Assembly: GCA_003142355.1 (NCBI GenBank)
Contig: PLMF01000236.1
Span: forward strand, 1,149 to 10,882
DNA: 9,734 nt
Direction: 5' to 3'
Origin: Bryobacterales bacterium
GTDB taxonomy: Bacteria > Acidobacteriota > Terriglobia > Bryobacterales > Bryobacteraceae
Below the pieces are notes generated by a model. That model made no database searches and was not told the origin of the DNA. It saw only the letters and a list, made by a program, of their open reading frames with translations. Made by a program: the position numbers and the translations under genes. This document shows positions 1,607-6,425 of this stretch, one piece after another. Position 1 is the stretch's first letter, and every line of letters starts with the position of its first letter.

Positions 1607-3525
1607 GCAATCGGCACGCGCTGGCCATCCTCGGGCTTTGGGCCTTCGCCCTGCTGGCGTATTCCAATTCCTTTCGGGCCGGCCTCTCGCTCGACAATGC
1701 CTGGGTGATTCAGGAAGATTCCCGCATACAGGCCGCCACATCCGAGAATGCGCGCCTCATCCTGACGCAGGATTATTCGTACCGGAACTCATCCAGCGGG
1801 CTCTATCGCCCGCTGACTACGTTCTCCTACCTGGTGAACTACACCATCCTCGGCGACGGTTCTCGTCCGGCCGGCTACCACTGGGTCAATTTCGCGCTGC
1901 ATGCCGTGAACATCCTGCTGGTCTACTGGCTGGGCTTACTGCTGTTCCGGGAGATGGGACCGGCGTGGGCGCTGGCCGCGGTTTGGGCGCTTCATCCCGT
2001 CCTTACCGAATCGGTCGCCAACATCGTGGGCCGGGCGGACCTACTGGCTGGTTTCGGCGTGCTGGCGGGCCTGCTCTGCCATGTGAAGAGCACGGCTGCT
2101 TCCGGCCGGCGCAAGCTGGCGTGGCTGGCAGCCCTGATGCTGGCCGCGGCCATCGGGATCTTCTCGAAGGAAAGCGCCGTGGTGCTGCTGGCCGCCATGG
2201 TGATTTACGACTTCACATTGGGAAGGGGCGGCGCGCGCGCCCGCTTGCCCGGATACCTGGCCGTGGCGGTACCGGTGGCGATCTTCTTGTACGTTCGTGA
2301 TCGGGTTTTTGCCGGGCTCGCCGCGGCCCCGGTCCCCTTCACCGATAACCCCCTCGTCGGCGCCGGTTTCTGGACGGCGCGCCTCACCGCCGTCAATGTG
2401 ATCGGCAAGTACCTGTGGCTGCTGGTGTGGCCGCGCGGCCTCTCCTGCGATTACTCCTACAACCAGATCCCGGTAGCCGGGTGGGGCGTCGGCAGTTTTG
2501 CCGTGCTGGCAATTGGTGCGGCCGCAATTCTTTGTTACCGCCGGCACAAAGCCGTGTGCTTTTTCACGGCTTTCTTTTTCGCGGCTCTGGCGCCGACCTC
2601 CAACCTGGTGATTCTCATCGGCAGCATCATGGCCGAACGGTTCCTGTACCTGCCGTCGGTGGGCTTCGCCGGTTGTCTGGTTTGGGCGATCTATAGGCGG
2701 CCCCGCATCGCGCCGGCTGTGCTGGGCCTCGTCTGCGCCGCGCTCGCCATCCGCACTTACGCCCGCAACATCGACTGGCTCGATGACCAGAGCCTCTGGG
2801 CCAGCGCCGCCAAGGTGTGCCCCGCCAGTTACAAGACACACCTGCACGTGGCGACTGCGCTGGTCGGACCCCAGGGGCAAGGGATGGACCGCGCCGTCGG
2901 CGAGGTGGACCGGTCGCTGGCCATCCTCGACGGCCTGCCCGACGACCGCAACGTACCTCAGGCCTACGCCGTCGCCGGTTTCATCTACCTCATGCAGGGT
3001 TCCGGCGCGCAGAAAGCGCTGGATGTGTTATTGCGCGGCGAGAGAATCGATCGCACCATCGCCCGGGAACTTCGCCGCGAAAATCAGTTGCGCGGCATCG
3101 CGACATCCCCCTCGGGCTGGTATCCCTTGTACCTGGCGCTGGGCGATGCATACCTTCGCCTGTCCCATCCGCGCCAGGCCATGGAAGCGTTCGAGTATGG
3201 CCGCACGCTGCGCCCGGTGCCGGAATTCTTCGAGGACATGTCGGCCGCGTGGCGCGCCATCGGAGACCCGCAACGGGCCGCCATCACGCTGATCGAGGGC
3301 CTGCTGGTGGACAAGGGTAACCGCAAGCTGGCTGCCGAACTGGTGGAACTCTACCGCGAGACCGATCCAGGGAGCTGCGCACCCAGCCTGGACCCGGCCT
3401 GTCCTCTGGTGCATGACCAGGTGTGCACGGCCATCCGCAACGTGAAGCAGCTTTACATGCGGATGGGACAGGCGCCGATGGCCCTAAGCGAGGCGGGCTG
3501 CCCCGCGTTAGAATCGTCTCCGTGA
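1603..3525 (+). CDS. TMTC-like GT-C membrane glycosyltransferase with C-terminal TPRs
   Basis: This encodes a 640-residue polytopic membrane protein. The first half has about eight to ten hydrophobic segments, for example near 6-22, 96-115, 119-130, 147-160, 172-187, 191-204, 217-230, 293-310, 319-340 and 371-384. Motifs resemble those of bacterial TMTC-like proteins, a GT-C-fold group related to protein O-mannosyltransferases. They are LDNAWVIQEDSRI in the first external loop (acidic residues D31, E38, D39), YRPLTTFSY at 68-76, HPVLTESVANIVGRADLLAG at 131-150, SCDYSYNQIP at 281-290 and MAERFLYLPSVGF at 343-355. The second half (about 410-585) holds TPR-like helix pairs, the clearest at 507-540. 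By family analogy it may transfer sugar from a lipid-linked donor to exported proteins; donor and acceptor are unknown. Its start overlaps the YkgJ stop as ATGA, and its stop overlaps the peptidase start as TGATG. The usual DD/DE in the first loop reads DN here. Confidence 0.82.
   Translation: MSNRHALAILGLWAFALLAYSNSFRAGLSLDNAWVIQEDSRIQAATSENARLILTQDYSYRNSSSGLYRPLTTFSYLVNYTILGDGSRPAGYHWVNFALHAVNILLVYWLGLLLFREMGPAWALAAVWALHPVLTESVANIVGRADLLAGFGVLAGLLCHVKSTAASGRRKLAWLAALMLAAAIGIFSKESAVVLLAAMVIYDFTLGRGGARARLPGYLAVAVPVAIFLYVRDRVFAGLAAAPVPFTDNPLVGAGFWTARLTAVNVIGKYLWLLVWPRGLSCDYSYNQIPVAGWGVGSFAVLAIGAAAILCYRRHKAVCFFTAFFFAALAPTSNLVILIGSIMAERFLYLPSVGFAGCLVWAIYRRPRIAPAVLGLVCAALAIRTYARNIDWLDDQSLWASAAKVCPASYKTHLHVATALVGPQGQGMDRAVGEVDRSLAILDGLPDDRNVPQAYAVAGFIYLMQGSGAQKALDVLLRGERIDRTIARELRRENQLRGIATSPSGWYPLYLALGDAYLRLSHPRQAMEAFEYGRTLRPVPEFFEDMSAAWRAIGDPQRAAITLIEGLLVDKGNRKLAAELVELYRETDPGSCAPSLDPACPLVHDQVCTAIRNVKQLYMRMGQAPMALSEAGCPALESSP
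3509..3514 (+). promoter_or_regulatory. Possible internal -10 box (TAGAAT) before the peptidase
   Basis: TAGAAT sits in the context GCGTTAGAATCG, similar to the two boxes upstream of 788 and 1094. It ends 7 bases before GTG 3522 and 10 bases before ATG 3525. It also lies inside the last codons of the preceding gene (Ala-Leu-Glu-Ser), so chance is a real possibility. If active, it would let the peptidase be transcribed apart from the operon. Confidence 0.3.
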
Positions 3526-6311
3526 TGACGTTTCGCGTTTGGACCCTGCTGGCCTTCGCGGCCTGTGCGCTCGCGCAACCCAAACCTACCCTCACCCCCG
3601 CCGACTACGGCAAATGGGAAACGCTCGGCGCCGGCACCCTTTCGCCCGATGGCAAATGGCTGGCTTACGAGATCCGCCGCTCCGGCGGCGACAACGAATT
3701 GCGCGTCGCGGCCACGGCCGGCCGTGGTAAAACGCACGTGCTGGCCTTCTGCTCCAGCGCAGCGTTCTCTGCCGATTCCCGGTACCTCGCGTGCCTGGCC
3801 ACGGTCTCCGAAACCGAGCAGGACCGCGCGCGCAAGGCCGGCCGGCCCGCCCAGAACAAGCTGAACGTGCTCGACCTGGGCAGCGGCGCGGTCGCCAAGG
3901 TGGATGACGTCCAGTCCCTGGCGTTTTCCGGCGTTGGTCCCTACCTGGCGTTTCGCAAGTATCCCCCGGTGGCTGCCGGGGTGCCCTCAGGGCCCGGTGG
4001 CCGCGGCGGAACTGCACCGGAAGCGGCGGACCCCGAGCGCGACCCCGCCGGCGCCGTCCTGGTGGTGCGCAACCTCTCCACCGGCGTCGACACCACTTTC
4101 GGCGACGTCACCAGCTACTCCTGGCAGGACAAGGGCAGCAACCTCGCCATGGCCATCGGCGTGGACGGCCGCGCGGGCAACGCCATCCAGGTTTTCGATC
4201 CGCGTTCCGGCTCGCTCCAGGCGTTGGACTCTGGGGCCGCGCTCTACACCGCGCTCACCTGGCGCAAGGAGTCGGCCGACCTGGCCGCTCTGCGCTCCCT
4301 CAAGCAGGATGGCTACCAGGGCGAGAGCTACACCGTGCTGGCATGGAAAAACCTGGGCCAGAAACGCTCGACCCACGTGGATGCGCCCAAACGCATCGTG
4401 CCATCACGCGCGCCGCAGTGGTCCGAGGACGGTTCCACCCTGTACGTCGGCATCGCCGAGTGGCCCACCAAAATCGAGGTGAAGAAGTCCGACGACGATC
4501 CCGCCACCGTGGAAGTCTGGCACTGGCAGGACGTCAACGTCATCAGCGAGCAGAAGCTGACCATCGCGCGCGACCGCGACCGCAATGCGCCGGCGGCGTG
4601 GCACCTGGCCACCGGCAAACTGGTGTCGCTTTCCACCAACGTCAAGGAAGACGTGCGGCTGCCGCGAAACGGCGCGCGCGCCCTGGCCCTCGATGGCGTG
4701 CCCTATCGGAACGACGCCATGTTCGGCCGCGAGTTTGCGGACGTCTATAAGATCGACCTCCACACCGGCGCGCGCGCCGAGGTGGCCAAACACCTCACGC
4801 CGCCGGTCGAGTTCAGCCCTGGCGGCCGCTACGCCCTGAATTTCAAGGAAGGCGATTTCTGGATCTACGATCTGGAATCGGGCGCCGCCCGCAACATCAC
4901 CCAGGATTCGAAAATCGGTTTCACCAACCAAGAGAACGACTACCCCGTGAGCCAGAAGCCTTCCTACGGCGTCGCCGGCTGGACCAAGGACGACCACAGC
5001 GTCATTGTGTACGACGCCTACGATCTCTGGGAAATCTTCCCCGATGGCGCCCAACCGAAGCGTCTCACCGACGGCACTGCCGAGGAAGTGCGCCATCGCT
5101 ACGTCCGCACCACCCCCGGCGCGGTTGCGGGCGGGCGTGGCGGCGGCGCCACGGAACCGATAGATCTTGCCAAGCCCATGTATGTGAGCCTGGAAGGCCG
5201 CTGGACCAAGAAGACCGGTTACGCGATTCTGCACGACGGCAAGACCGACCGCGTGATTTTTCAGGACAAGGGCGTGCGCGGCCTCGAGAAAGCCAAGGAC
5301 GCCGATACCTTCGTTTACCAGTCCGGCGCGTGGGACGATTCGCCCAACTTCTTCGCCGCCGGAGCGGACCTGAAGAATGCCACGCGGGTCAGCGACACCA
5401 ATCCCTTCGCCTCGCAGTACGCCTGGGGCCGCGCGGAGTTGATCGACTACCGGAATTCGCATGGCGACCGCCTGCAAGGTGCGCTCTTCTACCCCGCCGC
5501 CTACGAGAAGGGCAAGCAATACCCGCTCATCGTGCGGATTTACGAAATCGAGAGCAACCAGATCCACAACTGGATGGCGCCCTCCGAGCGCACCACCTAT
5601 AACGCCGCGGTGTGGACCCAGCACGGCTATTTCGTCTTGCTCCCGGACATCGTCTTCAAACCGCGCGACCCGGGGGTCTCGGCGCTCGATTGCGTCACCG
5701 CGGCGGTGAAGAAGGTCGTAGCGAGCGGCATGATCGACGCCAGCCACATCGGCCTCACCGGCCATTCGTGGGGCGGATACGAGACCACCTTCATCCTGAC
5801 GCACAGCGGCCTGTTCGCCGCGGGCGCCGTGGGCGGAGCGTTGACCAACCTCTCCTCCAGCGTCGGTGAGATTTATTGGAACACCGGCGTGCCCGAAACC
5901 AACCACGTCGAAGTCAGCCAGGAGCGCATGCAGGTGCCGCTCTACGAAGACCCGCAGTCGTACATCCGCAACTCCGCCACCTTCGTCGCCAACAAGCTGG
6001 CCGCGCCGCTGCTGATGGAGGCCGGCGACCACGATGGCGCTTCCGACTGGCACCAGGACATCGAGTTCTACAACGCTGCGCGCCGCGCCGGCAAGCCCTG
6101 CGTGATGCTGGTGTATGAAGGCGAAAACCACTCGGTGGCCCAGAAAGCCAACCAGACGGACTACCACCGCCGCATCAACGCCTGGTTCGATCACTACCTG
6201 AAAGGCGCCCCCGCCGAAGACTGGATGACCAATGGCGTCACCGTCCTCGAGATGAAAAGGGGTCAGACGCATTTTCCGTCTGCACCCAACCCGTCTGCAC
6301 CCATCAAATAG
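3525..6311 (+). CDS. Secreted S9-family (prolyl oligopeptidase-like) serine peptidase
   Basis: Counted from ATG 3525 the protein has 928 residues. The N-terminus MTFRVWTLLAFAACALAQP is a typical Sec signal peptide with probable cleavage after ALA, so the enzyme is exported. Residues about 25-640 contain WD40/DPP-like propeller repeats (LSPDGKWLAYE, FSADSRYLACL, WSEDGSTLYVG, FSPGGRYALNF). Residues about 660-905 form the alpha/beta-hydrolase domain. The catalytic triad is visible: Ser748 in GHSWGGYE, Asp837 in AGDHDGASDW and His869 in EGENHSV. S9 enzymes cut short peptides, often after proline or as dipeptidyl or acylaminoacyl peptidases; the specificity cannot be read here. Gly/Arg-rich linkers occur near 153-178 and 530-543. 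GTG 3522 is an alternative start one codon earlier. The stop of the preceding gene overlaps the ATG. The last 18 residues, from Lys911 on, are encoded by an inverted-repeat element, giving an odd PSAPNPSAPIK tail. Confidence 0.92.
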   Translation: MTFRVWTLLAFAACALAQPKPTLTPADYGKWETLGAGTLSPDGKWLAYEIRRSGGDNELRVAATAGRGKTHVLAFCSSAAFSADSRYLACLATVSETEQDRARKAGRPAQNKLNVLDLGSGAVAKVDDVQSLAFSGVGPYLAFRKYPPVAAGVPSGPGGRGGTAPEAADPERDPAGAVLVVRNLSTGVDTTFGDVTSYSWQDKGSNLAMAIGVDGRAGNAIQVFDPRSGSLQALDSGAALYTALTWRKESADLAALRSLKQDGYQGESYTVLAWKNLGQKRSTHVDAPKRIVPSRAPQWSEDGSTLYVGIAEWPTKIEVKKSDDDPATVEVWHWQDVNVISEQKLTIARDRDRNAPAAWHLATGKLVSLSTNVKEDVRLPRNGARALALDGVPYRNDAMFGREFADVYKIDLHTGARAEVAKHLTPPVEFSPGGRYALNFKEGDFWIYDLESGAARNITQDSKIGFTNQENDYPVSQKPSYGVAGWTKDDHSVIVYDAYDLWEIFPDGAQPKRLTDGTAEEVRHRYVRTTPGAVAGGRGGGATEPIDLAKPMYVSLEGRWTKKTGYAILHDGKTDRVIFQDKGVRGLEKAKDADTFVYQSGAWDDSPNFFAAGADLKNATRVSDTNPFASQYAWGRAELIDYRNSHGDRLQGALFYPAAYEKGKQYPLIVRIYEIESNQIHNWMAPSERTTYNAAVWTQHGYFVLLPDIVFKPRDPGVSALDCVTAAVKKVVASGMIDASHIGLTGHSWGGYETTFILTHSGLFAAGAVGGALTNLSSSVGEIYWNTGVPETNHVEVSQERMQVPLYEDPQSYIRNSATFVANKLAAPLLMEAGDHDGASDWHQDIEFYNAARRAGKPCVMLVYEGENHSVAQKANQTDYHRRINAWFDHYLKGAPAEDWMTNGVTVLEMKRGQTHFPSAPNPSAPIK

Positions 6312-6393
6312 CCGGCCTTGCGGCGGGCCATGGTGTAGGACGGGTGCGTAACGCGCTGGAAGGTTCTCAGGAAAATGCGTCTGACCCCTTTTC
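6254..6393. mobile_element. 140-bp element with 24-bp perfect inverted repeats (MITE/REP-like)
   Basis: Bases 6254-6277 and 6370-6393 are exact reverse complements over 24 bp. The arms begin GAAAAGGGG, contain GGGGTCAGACGC and end ATTTTCC, and they flank a 92-bp centre with no gene. The first arm overlaps the 3' end of the peptidase frame. The second lies just past the stop of the convergent kinase. Repeats with a GGGGTCAGAC core are, to my recollection, often found around REP-associated tyrosine (Y1/IS200-like) transposase genes in acidobacteria and other soil bacteria. This copy carries no transposase, so it would be non-autonomous. No clear target duplication is visible, as expected for Y1-type elements. 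It could alternatively act as a bidirectional terminator through a long stem. Confidence 0.6.
6276..6303 (+). repeat. Two-copy direct repeat, 13 bp at 15-bp period
   Basis: CCGTCTGCACCCA occurs at 6276-6288 and again at 6291-6303, at the left side of the inverted-repeat element and inside the peptidase reading frame. The period of 15 is a multiple of three, so the repeat encodes the duplicated peptide PSAPNPSAP at the very C-terminus. It probably arose by slippage within the element. Confidence 0.8.
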
Positions 6394-6425
6394 TACCCCT
6401 TTTCTACCCTTTTCTACTTTTCTGA
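6385..6425. repeat. Decaying 11-bp tandem repeat (CCCCTTTTCTA)
   Basis: CCCCTTTTCTA occurs at 6385-6395 and 6396-6406, then shortens to CCCTTTTCTA at 6407-6416 and CTTTTCTGA at 6417-6425. The first unit overlaps the right arm of the inverted-repeat element. On the minus strand the units read TAGAAAAGGGG, so each carries a TAG; one of them (6414-6416) is the stop codon of the histidine kinase and the last unit encodes its final Ser-Glu-Lys. The T-rich plus strand may also help end transcription from the left. Confidence 0.8.

What the first reader, a model, noticed from the sequence alone, without database searches (positions are those of the whole stretch)
6254..6393. A 24-bp perfect inverted-repeat element lodged between two convergent gene ends
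Arms 6254-6277 and 6370-6393 are exact reverse complements around 92 bp with no gene. A 24-bp match this close is very unlikely by chance. The arm core GGGGTCAGACGC resembles repeats that I recall around IS200-like REP-associated tyrosine transposases, so this may be a non-autonomous member of such a family, at a spot tolerant of insertion.
Basis: partly seen in the sequence, partly recalled or inferred. Interest (0 to 1): 0.7.

Follow-up and report, generated by a model that had tools for sequence, protein, structure and literature searches.

The report
Gutted transposon between two gene ends
A 140-base hairpin between two bacterial genes looks like the emptied shell of a small mobile element whose intact relatives carry a single-strand-DNA transposase, so it is a new example of a known kind of genomic parasite, with an odd stutter of partial copies at one edge.

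Summary
In detail: arms 6254-6277 and 6370-6393 are perfect 24-bp reverse complements, far beyond chance. The arm core GGGGTCAG fits the GGGGWSAS motif of TIRYT elements (PMC3733652, passages). In the family of a Ca. Sulfopaludibacter genome, arms of this type flank Y1 transposase genes and occur 169 times in 27 of 237 genomes. On the minus strand the right arm runs on into the 5' leader of those genes, with TGAGA box and start codon at family spacing; of 168 arms, only eight at Y1 genes (the model's own training loci), one at a degraded Y1 start, and this one match the whole leader. It is best read as an internally deleted, non-autonomous TIRYT element. It is not in gene-free DNA: it supplies the end of the S9-peptidase ORF. 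In the nearest relative (86-90% protein identity) both contigs break here in a different repeat. A ladder of flank plus truncated arm tip recurs in relatives, unexplained. The window's own genome could not be checked.

The parts
6254..6277 (+). left 24-bp terminal inverted repeat (3' end of the ancestral element)
   Evidence: GGGGTCAG fits GGGGWSAS (PMC3733652, passages)
6370..6393 (-). right 24-bp terminal inverted repeat (5' end of the ancestral element)
6332..6369 (-). remnant of the transposase gene's leader; TGAGA box at 6365-6369
   Evidence: leader HMM hit 6388-6321, 28.7 bits, E 1.3e-8; alignment; GAGA 32-40 nt before the start in 32 of 35 Y1 leaders
6314..6331 (-). remnant start codon and first codons of the transposase (ATGGCCCGCCGCAAGGCC, MARRKA)
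   Evidence: start codon spacing in the range of intact elements
6276..6303 (+). two copies of CCGTCTGCACCCA (6276-6288, 6291-6303) inside the element, resembling the arm core
   Evidence: sequence; relation to the arm is inference
6394..6423 (-). ladder outside the right arm: flank (T)AG plus arm tips AAAAG, AAAAGGG, AAAAGGGG
6252..6311 (+). 3' end of the S9-peptidase ORF where it departs from the G061 ortholog; tail and stop codon lie in the element
   Evidence: comparison with G061
6414..6422 (-). last two codons and TAG stop of the kinase ORF, lying in the ladder
   Evidence: G061 ends REVLS*, window REVLSEK*

Best explanation
The 140 bp (6254-6393) is an internally deleted, non-autonomous TIRYT element. 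Its ancestor had a Y1 (HuH) transposase gene, read on the minus strand, between two inverted copies of GAAAAGGGGTCAGACGCATTTTCC. Nearly the whole gene was lost, leaving both arms, the leader with its TGAGA box, and the start codon with about six codons. On a single strand the arms pair into a 24-bp hairpin, which a TIRYT encoded elsewhere would recognise and move as single-stranded DNA, as proposed for REP/REPIN elements. It sits at the junction of two convergent genes and now provides the end of one of them. Shown: the arms, the leader and start remnant, arms of this type around Y1 genes and as multicopy dimers in relatives, and a different repeat at this junction in the nearest relative as far as it is assembled. 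Inferred: mobility in trans through a TIRYT, the single-strand route, and that this copy was inserted already deleted rather than deleted in place.
For: L012: a 241-aa Y1 gene between inverted tandem arrays of the arm, four copies on each side. Inverted repeats with GGGGACAGACG on both sides of the Y1 genes of L023 (the L012 locus), L025 and L027, and on one of two sides of L028. AAAGGGGWCAGACGC: 169 places in 27 of 237 family genomes against 5 for the backwards control. G078: 38 of its 49 AAAGGGGWCAGAC arms form 19 inward-facing pairs. A leader HMM of 12 loci, built without the window, hits the right arm over model positions 1-66 at 28.7 bits and the left arm only over 1-18 at 11.2 bits. Of 168 arms scored, 10 reach model position 60: eight at Y1 genes, all from training loci and three of them stacked arms of L012; one, L204, at a weak Y1 N-terminal remnant (residues 1-44, E 0.013); and the window. 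TGAGAACCTTC beyond the arm is identical to L025/L248; GAGA to ATG is 37 nt in the window, 30-39 in relatives that have the box.
Against: No copy or transposase could be sought in the window's own genome. G061, the nearest relative, has 3 such arms but no match to the L012 transposase at E 0.001 and one weaker Y1 domain hit. The leader without its arm scores only 2.1 bits, E 4, below an unrelated place in the window. The interior as a whole matched no held locus better than E 0.65, and the 3' half has no counterpart. No target-site duplication or clean empty site was seen. No HTH hit in the relatives' C-termini, which subclass 2.1 should have.
Confidence: 0.83

Rival explanations
1. A plain TIR dimer (REPIN-like): two arms around unrelated host DNA that never held a transposase gene; the leader likeness is coincidence.
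For: Dimers without leader are common in relatives, e.g. 19 pairs in G078, and the leader alone scores weakly.
Against: Eleven identical bases directly beyond the arm, TGAGA box, start codon at the family spacing and a CCCGCCGC start of the coding part. Apart from arms at Y1 genes or a Y1 remnant, none of the other arms among 168 reaches the end of the leader model. The gap between the 13-base cores is 110 nt, against 24-61 in the 19 G078 dimers; the next largest in held loci is 102, in an array of G002.
Confidence: 0.12
2. A host-kept bidirectional transcription terminator or mRNA 3'-end stabiliser of the two convergent genes, of whatever origin.
For: 24-bp hairpin at the junction of two convergent genes; strong fold. 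REPs lie mostly downstream of coding regions (PMC3733652, abstract passage).
Against: The terminator scan finds no site at the arms and one weak site inside; shuffles give 0.6 on average. The nearest relative shows another repeat here. It does not explain the leader and start codon. A role could have been added later.
Confidence: 0.04
3. A remnant of some other insertion sequence with 24-bp ends, unrelated to Y1 transposases.
For: Perfect terminal repeats are typical of DDE insertion sequences (general knowledge).
Against: Arms of this type flank Y1 genes in relatives, and the leader matches theirs.
Confidence: 0.01

Closest known systems
TIRYT / TIRtron elements (PMC3733652; most are TnpAREP subclass 2.1 of PMC6006769)
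   Same: Inverted terminal repeats with GGGGWSAS (here GGGGTCAG); relatives' arm-bearing Y1 proteins of 232-244 aa with mostly NHVH and Y[VI][DE]LNP; TIRs found as dimers or clusters
   Different: No transposase left; keeps leader and start codon; ladder of truncated tips outside the arm, not mentioned in the passages read; no HTH hit in the relatives' C-termini
REPINs / GTAG REPs with RAYTs (PMC3116915, PMC2817692, passages)
   Same: Two inverted repeats making a hairpin, multicopy in relatives, tied to a Y1 transposase gene
   Different: No systematic GTAG head; arms are longer terminal repeats; this copy appears to derive from the gene-bearing element itself
MITEs (generic; size and definition in PMC3116915 passage)
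   Same: 140 bp, terminal inverted repeats, no gene, internal-deletion origin
   Different: No target-site duplication seen; presumed single-strand Y1 mechanism

Membership tests
TIRYT element (TIRtron), non-autonomous derivative | terminal inverted repeats with motif GGGGWSAS | tested here: met
   GGGGTCAG in both arms; motif from passages of PMC3733652
TIRYT element (TIRtron), non-autonomous derivative | same kind of repeats flank a Y1 (PF01797) gene | tested here: met
   in relatives: L012/L023, L025, L027 on both sides, L028 on one of two; Pfam PF01797 over cut-off in 5 of 5 proteins scanned
TIRYT element (TIRtron), non-autonomous derivative | interior derived from the gene-bearing element | tested here: met
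   5' leader and start codon; the 3' part is not matched and the leader without arm is not significant alone
TIRYT element (TIRtron), non-autonomous derivative | repeated in the host genome with a TIRYT present | not testable with these tools
   no genome held; in the family 169 places in 27 of 237 genomes
autonomous TIRYT element | encodes its own Y1 transposase | tested here: not met
   92-nt interior only
TnpAREP subclass 2.1 (relatives' transposases) | about 238 aa, NHVH, YIELNP or Y[IV]HLNP | tested here: met
   six full-length arm-bearing proteins of 232-244 aa; of 13 translations printed, fragments and one repeated gene included, 9 hold NHVH and 9 hold Y[VI]xxNP; table in PMC6006769 section 17
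TnpAREP subclass 2.1 (relatives' transposases) | C-terminal helix-turn-helix domain | tested here: inconclusive
   no HTH family listed at E up to 10 in 5 of 5 proteins; HMMER's filters drop weak hits
GTAG REP / REPIN | GTAG (or GTRG) head on a REP palindrome | tested here: not met
   GTAG stands just outside the right arm, formed by the ladder, but not at the left arm; GTAG lies within 6 nt outside in 4 of 198 arms, the window's included
MITE | about 100-400 bp, terminal inverted repeats, no gene | tested here: met
   140 bp
MITE | target-site duplication (not in all families) | tested here: inconclusive
   none visible; no clean empty site, since G061 contigs break there

The most novel reading that the evidence does not exclude
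The ladders outside the arms are a reproducible mutational signature of these elements: short flank pieces plus roughly the first 5-13 nt of the arm are duplicated stepwise, as if replication repeatedly stalled at the foot of the element's hairpin and slipped back, or as if the transposase made abortive cuts there. Resident elements would then keep writing new codons and stops onto neighbouring gene ends, as seen at the kinase's stop here.
Probability: 0.4. Interest if true: 0.55.

Novelty: new member of a known kind. Interest (0 to 1): 0.38.

Why it matters
It ties a miniature repeat to the 5' end of a TIRYT gene, which shows by sequence how such miniature elements can arise from the gene-bearing form. 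TIRYTs are named in only two papers of the library searched, and both treat them by sequence analysis in the passages I saw. The copies in this family, with matching arms, dimers, tandem arrays and ladders, give a concrete substrate set for testing how these enzymes cut. The element also rewrites the end of a coding sequence.

Tried and rejected
Chance inverted repeat: rejected. Rfam: no family at gathering score. Plasmid DNA match: one record, a 29-bp stretch, taken as unrelated. The exact arm 18-mer gave 7 stretches in the collection of 84,980 species genomes, about what chance gives by my own estimate (7 to 8); only 2 of 7 are Bryobacterales by record title, so the exact arm alone proves little. 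The one viral-contig hit showed no second arm in the 1.7 kb read. BLAST of the interior against the held loci gave nothing better than E 0.65. A leader model without the arm is not significant (2.1 bits, E 4; another place in the window scored 4.1 bits). Phylum sample: 2 of 396 genomes, one of them G002 itself, so the arm subtype looks close to family-confined. A paper search for four 10-mers of the arm core found 96 papers and listed 20, none about bacterial repeats by title; the other 76 were not seen. A search aimed at duplications and slippage at REPs listed two papers, both already known. Ladder as target-site duplication: rejected by eye, since the flank unit is not seen beyond the other arm in the window, L133, L138 or L140.

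Ladder statistics have limits. In one search the 15 of 181 arms (15 array members set aside from 196) include the window and at least two loci fetched because they matched a ladder pattern (L276, L284); other loci were hand-picked too. Permuted flanks gave mean 1.4, maximum 7. In the less biased count, 15 places match a ladder pattern in the same 237 genomes that hold 169 arms, but a few of the 15 are not true ladders (for example G002:C143); the backwards control there is 0 in the rows shown, yet it is a weak control because backwards arms are rare too. In a first test the inner side of the arms was also raised (11 of 195 against 21 of 195 outside at three bases), partly, I think, from full-arm arrays.

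Mended on checking: I had first counted nine Y1 genes among the ten whole-leader arms; L204 has only a weak N-terminal remnant, and the eight others are training loci. I lowered the main confidence from 0.85 to 0.83 for that.

Full report
Observation. The window holds an exact 24-bp inverted repeat at 6254-6277 and 6370-6393 with 92 nt between. Of the 25 longest of 86 pairs shown, the only other perfect one is 16 bp with 286 nt between. About 5e-8 such pairs are expected at 65% G+C (the window has 64.8%). The single strand folds to -45.9 kcal/mol, z = -8.9. The two genes are convergent: an S9-peptidase ORF (PF00326) and a hybrid histidine kinase ORF.

Host and relatives. No genome is held for the window. 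The exact arm 18-mer occurs in 7 stretches of the species collection, near chance; two are Bryobacterales by title (L002; L004, Ca. Sulfopaludibacter), and both share the AAA before and C after it. With the L004 genome (G002) as centre, the closest relative found in the 150 family genomes searched is G061: kinase 86% identical, S9 90%.

Repeat family. In G002 (contig 259) the arm stands in four tandem 22-bp copies upstream and four inverted copies downstream of a 241-aa Y1 gene. Across 237 genomes of that family AAAGGGGWCAGACGC occurs 169 times in 27 genomes, against 5 for the backwards control; in a phylum sample 2 of 396 genomes have it, one being G002. G078 has 49 arms of the looser pattern AAAGGGGWCAGAC, controls 0, and 38 of them form 19 inward-facing pairs with 24-61 nt between the 13-base cores (window 110). 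The L012 transposase finds matches in 106 of 150 family genomes. Of the 30 Y1 loci returned, all examined, the best inverted repeat holds GGGGACAG on both sides in nine (L023, L025, L027, L036, L041, L044, L045, L049, L050) and on one side in two (L028, L051); others carry different repeats or none above the shuffled level. Within these, the GACGCATT continuation of the window's arm is in L023, L025 and L027.

What the interior is. Read on the minus strand the element is arm, TGAGAACCTTC..., ATGGCCCGCCGCAAGGCC. Intact Y1 elements read arm, (T)GAGA, about 30 nt, then typically ATGCCCCGCCG. GAGA lies 32-40 nt before the start in 32 of 35 leaders, shuffled mean 1.15, maximum 5. A profile built from 12 leaders, none from the window and two of them nearly identical, hits 6388-6321 minus at 28.7 bits (E 1.3e-8), and the other arm only over the arm itself (11.2 bits). 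Scanning 168 arms, 10 reach model position 60: eight at Y1 genes, all from the training loci (three are stacked arms of L012; L033 is interrupted and L105 cut by its contig end); L204, where residues 1-44 of a Y1 protein match weakly (E 0.013); and the window. The two that were not in the training set are thus a degraded Y1 start and the window. L025/L248 shares CCTGAGAACCTTC with the window base for base. The likely history is loss of nearly all of a transposase gene between intact arms. Against this: the part after MARRKA matches nothing found, and the leader without its arm is not significant alone.

The site. In G061 the S9 homology stops at about the same base (GTCCTCGAG) and the kinase ends REVLS*, but both G061 contigs end right there with a GAAGTGCGAAAGT-type sequence facing outward. 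That 13-mer occurs 15 times in G061, control 0, and all 15 lie within about 30 bases of a contig end, so it is most likely the end of a multicopy insertion sequence. The spot has thus probably taken different elements in two relatives. A clean empty site was not seen.

Known kind. The motif GGGGWSAS, the dimer or cluster arrangement and acidobacterial TIRYTs are described in PMC3733652 (passages). PMC6006769 (passages, sections 17 and 20) places 20 of the 26 TIRYTs in subclass 2.1, about 238 aa, NHVH and YIELNP or Y[IV]HLNP; the relatives' proteins fit except for the HTH, which Pfam did not list. NCBIfam's REP-associated tyrosine transposase model scores 69.2-80.4 bits against a cut-off of 80, one of five proteins reaching it. 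The one PDB match up to E 0.01 is a TnpArep (4er8, E 1.6e-4). RAYT and REPIN biology is from passages of PMC2817692, PMC3116915 and PMC8266576.

The ladder. Outside the right arm, read inward, the sequence is GTC-AGAAAAG-TAGAAAAGGG-TAGAAAAGGGG-TAGAAAAGGGGTCAGAC: the flank TAG and an arm tip that grows step by step; the kinase's stop codon lies in it. Similar ladders, each with its own flank, stand at L002, L013, L026, L133, L138, L139, L140 and others; 15 of 181 non-array arms against a permuted mean of 1.4, maximum 7, with the sampling bias told under Tried and rejected. Tips of AAAAGG or longer start within 20 nt outside the arm in at most 18 arms (6 and 12 in the two 10-nt bins), against 1-4 per bin further out. 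In the family scan 15 places match a ladder pattern, 169 arms being present. By eye, several junctions share 1-3 bases between the truncated tip and the flank (CAG in L140 and L284, GG in L138), others none (L136, L026). I favour slippage at the foot of the hairpin. PMC3116915 reports REPIN excisions that leave about 6 bp of the end (passage), so scars of excision are the alternative. Neither is shown.

Verdict. A well resolved but mostly ordinary case: a new, non-autonomous member of a known transposon kind, with one unexplained, testable side feature.

Noticed in passing
window 6394-6423; L138, L139, L140, L133, L013, L002, L026: Ladders of flank plus truncated arm tip outside the arms; mechanism open.
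   Followed up: partly
L012:1476-2432: Y1 gene flanked by four tandem 22-bp arms upstream and four inverted downstream, an unusual array at an apparently intact element.
   Followed up: partly
Y1 leaders in L014, L129, L025, L109 and others: A GAGA box 32-40 nt before the start codon in 32 of 35 Y1 leaders, whatever the arm sequence; role unknown, perhaps a transposase or expression signal.
   Followed up: no
L204:124-305 (G046): Another arm followed by the Y1 leader and only a weak Y1 N-terminal match (residues 1-44, E 0.013): probably a second decayed element.
   Followed up: no
L053:1-20, L073:1-21; G061, 15 places: An outward-facing repeat beginning GAAGTGCGAAAGT at contig ends in G061, probably the end of a multicopy insertion sequence.
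   Followed up: partly
L179, L182, L183, L187 (G168): Pairs of GGGGTCAGACGC arms lying tip to tip with 5 nt between the 13-base cores, the reverse of the inward-facing dimers elsewhere.
   Followed up: no
window 3157-3172 and 3459-3474: A 16-bp perfect inverted repeat with 286 nt between (I22).
   Followed up: no
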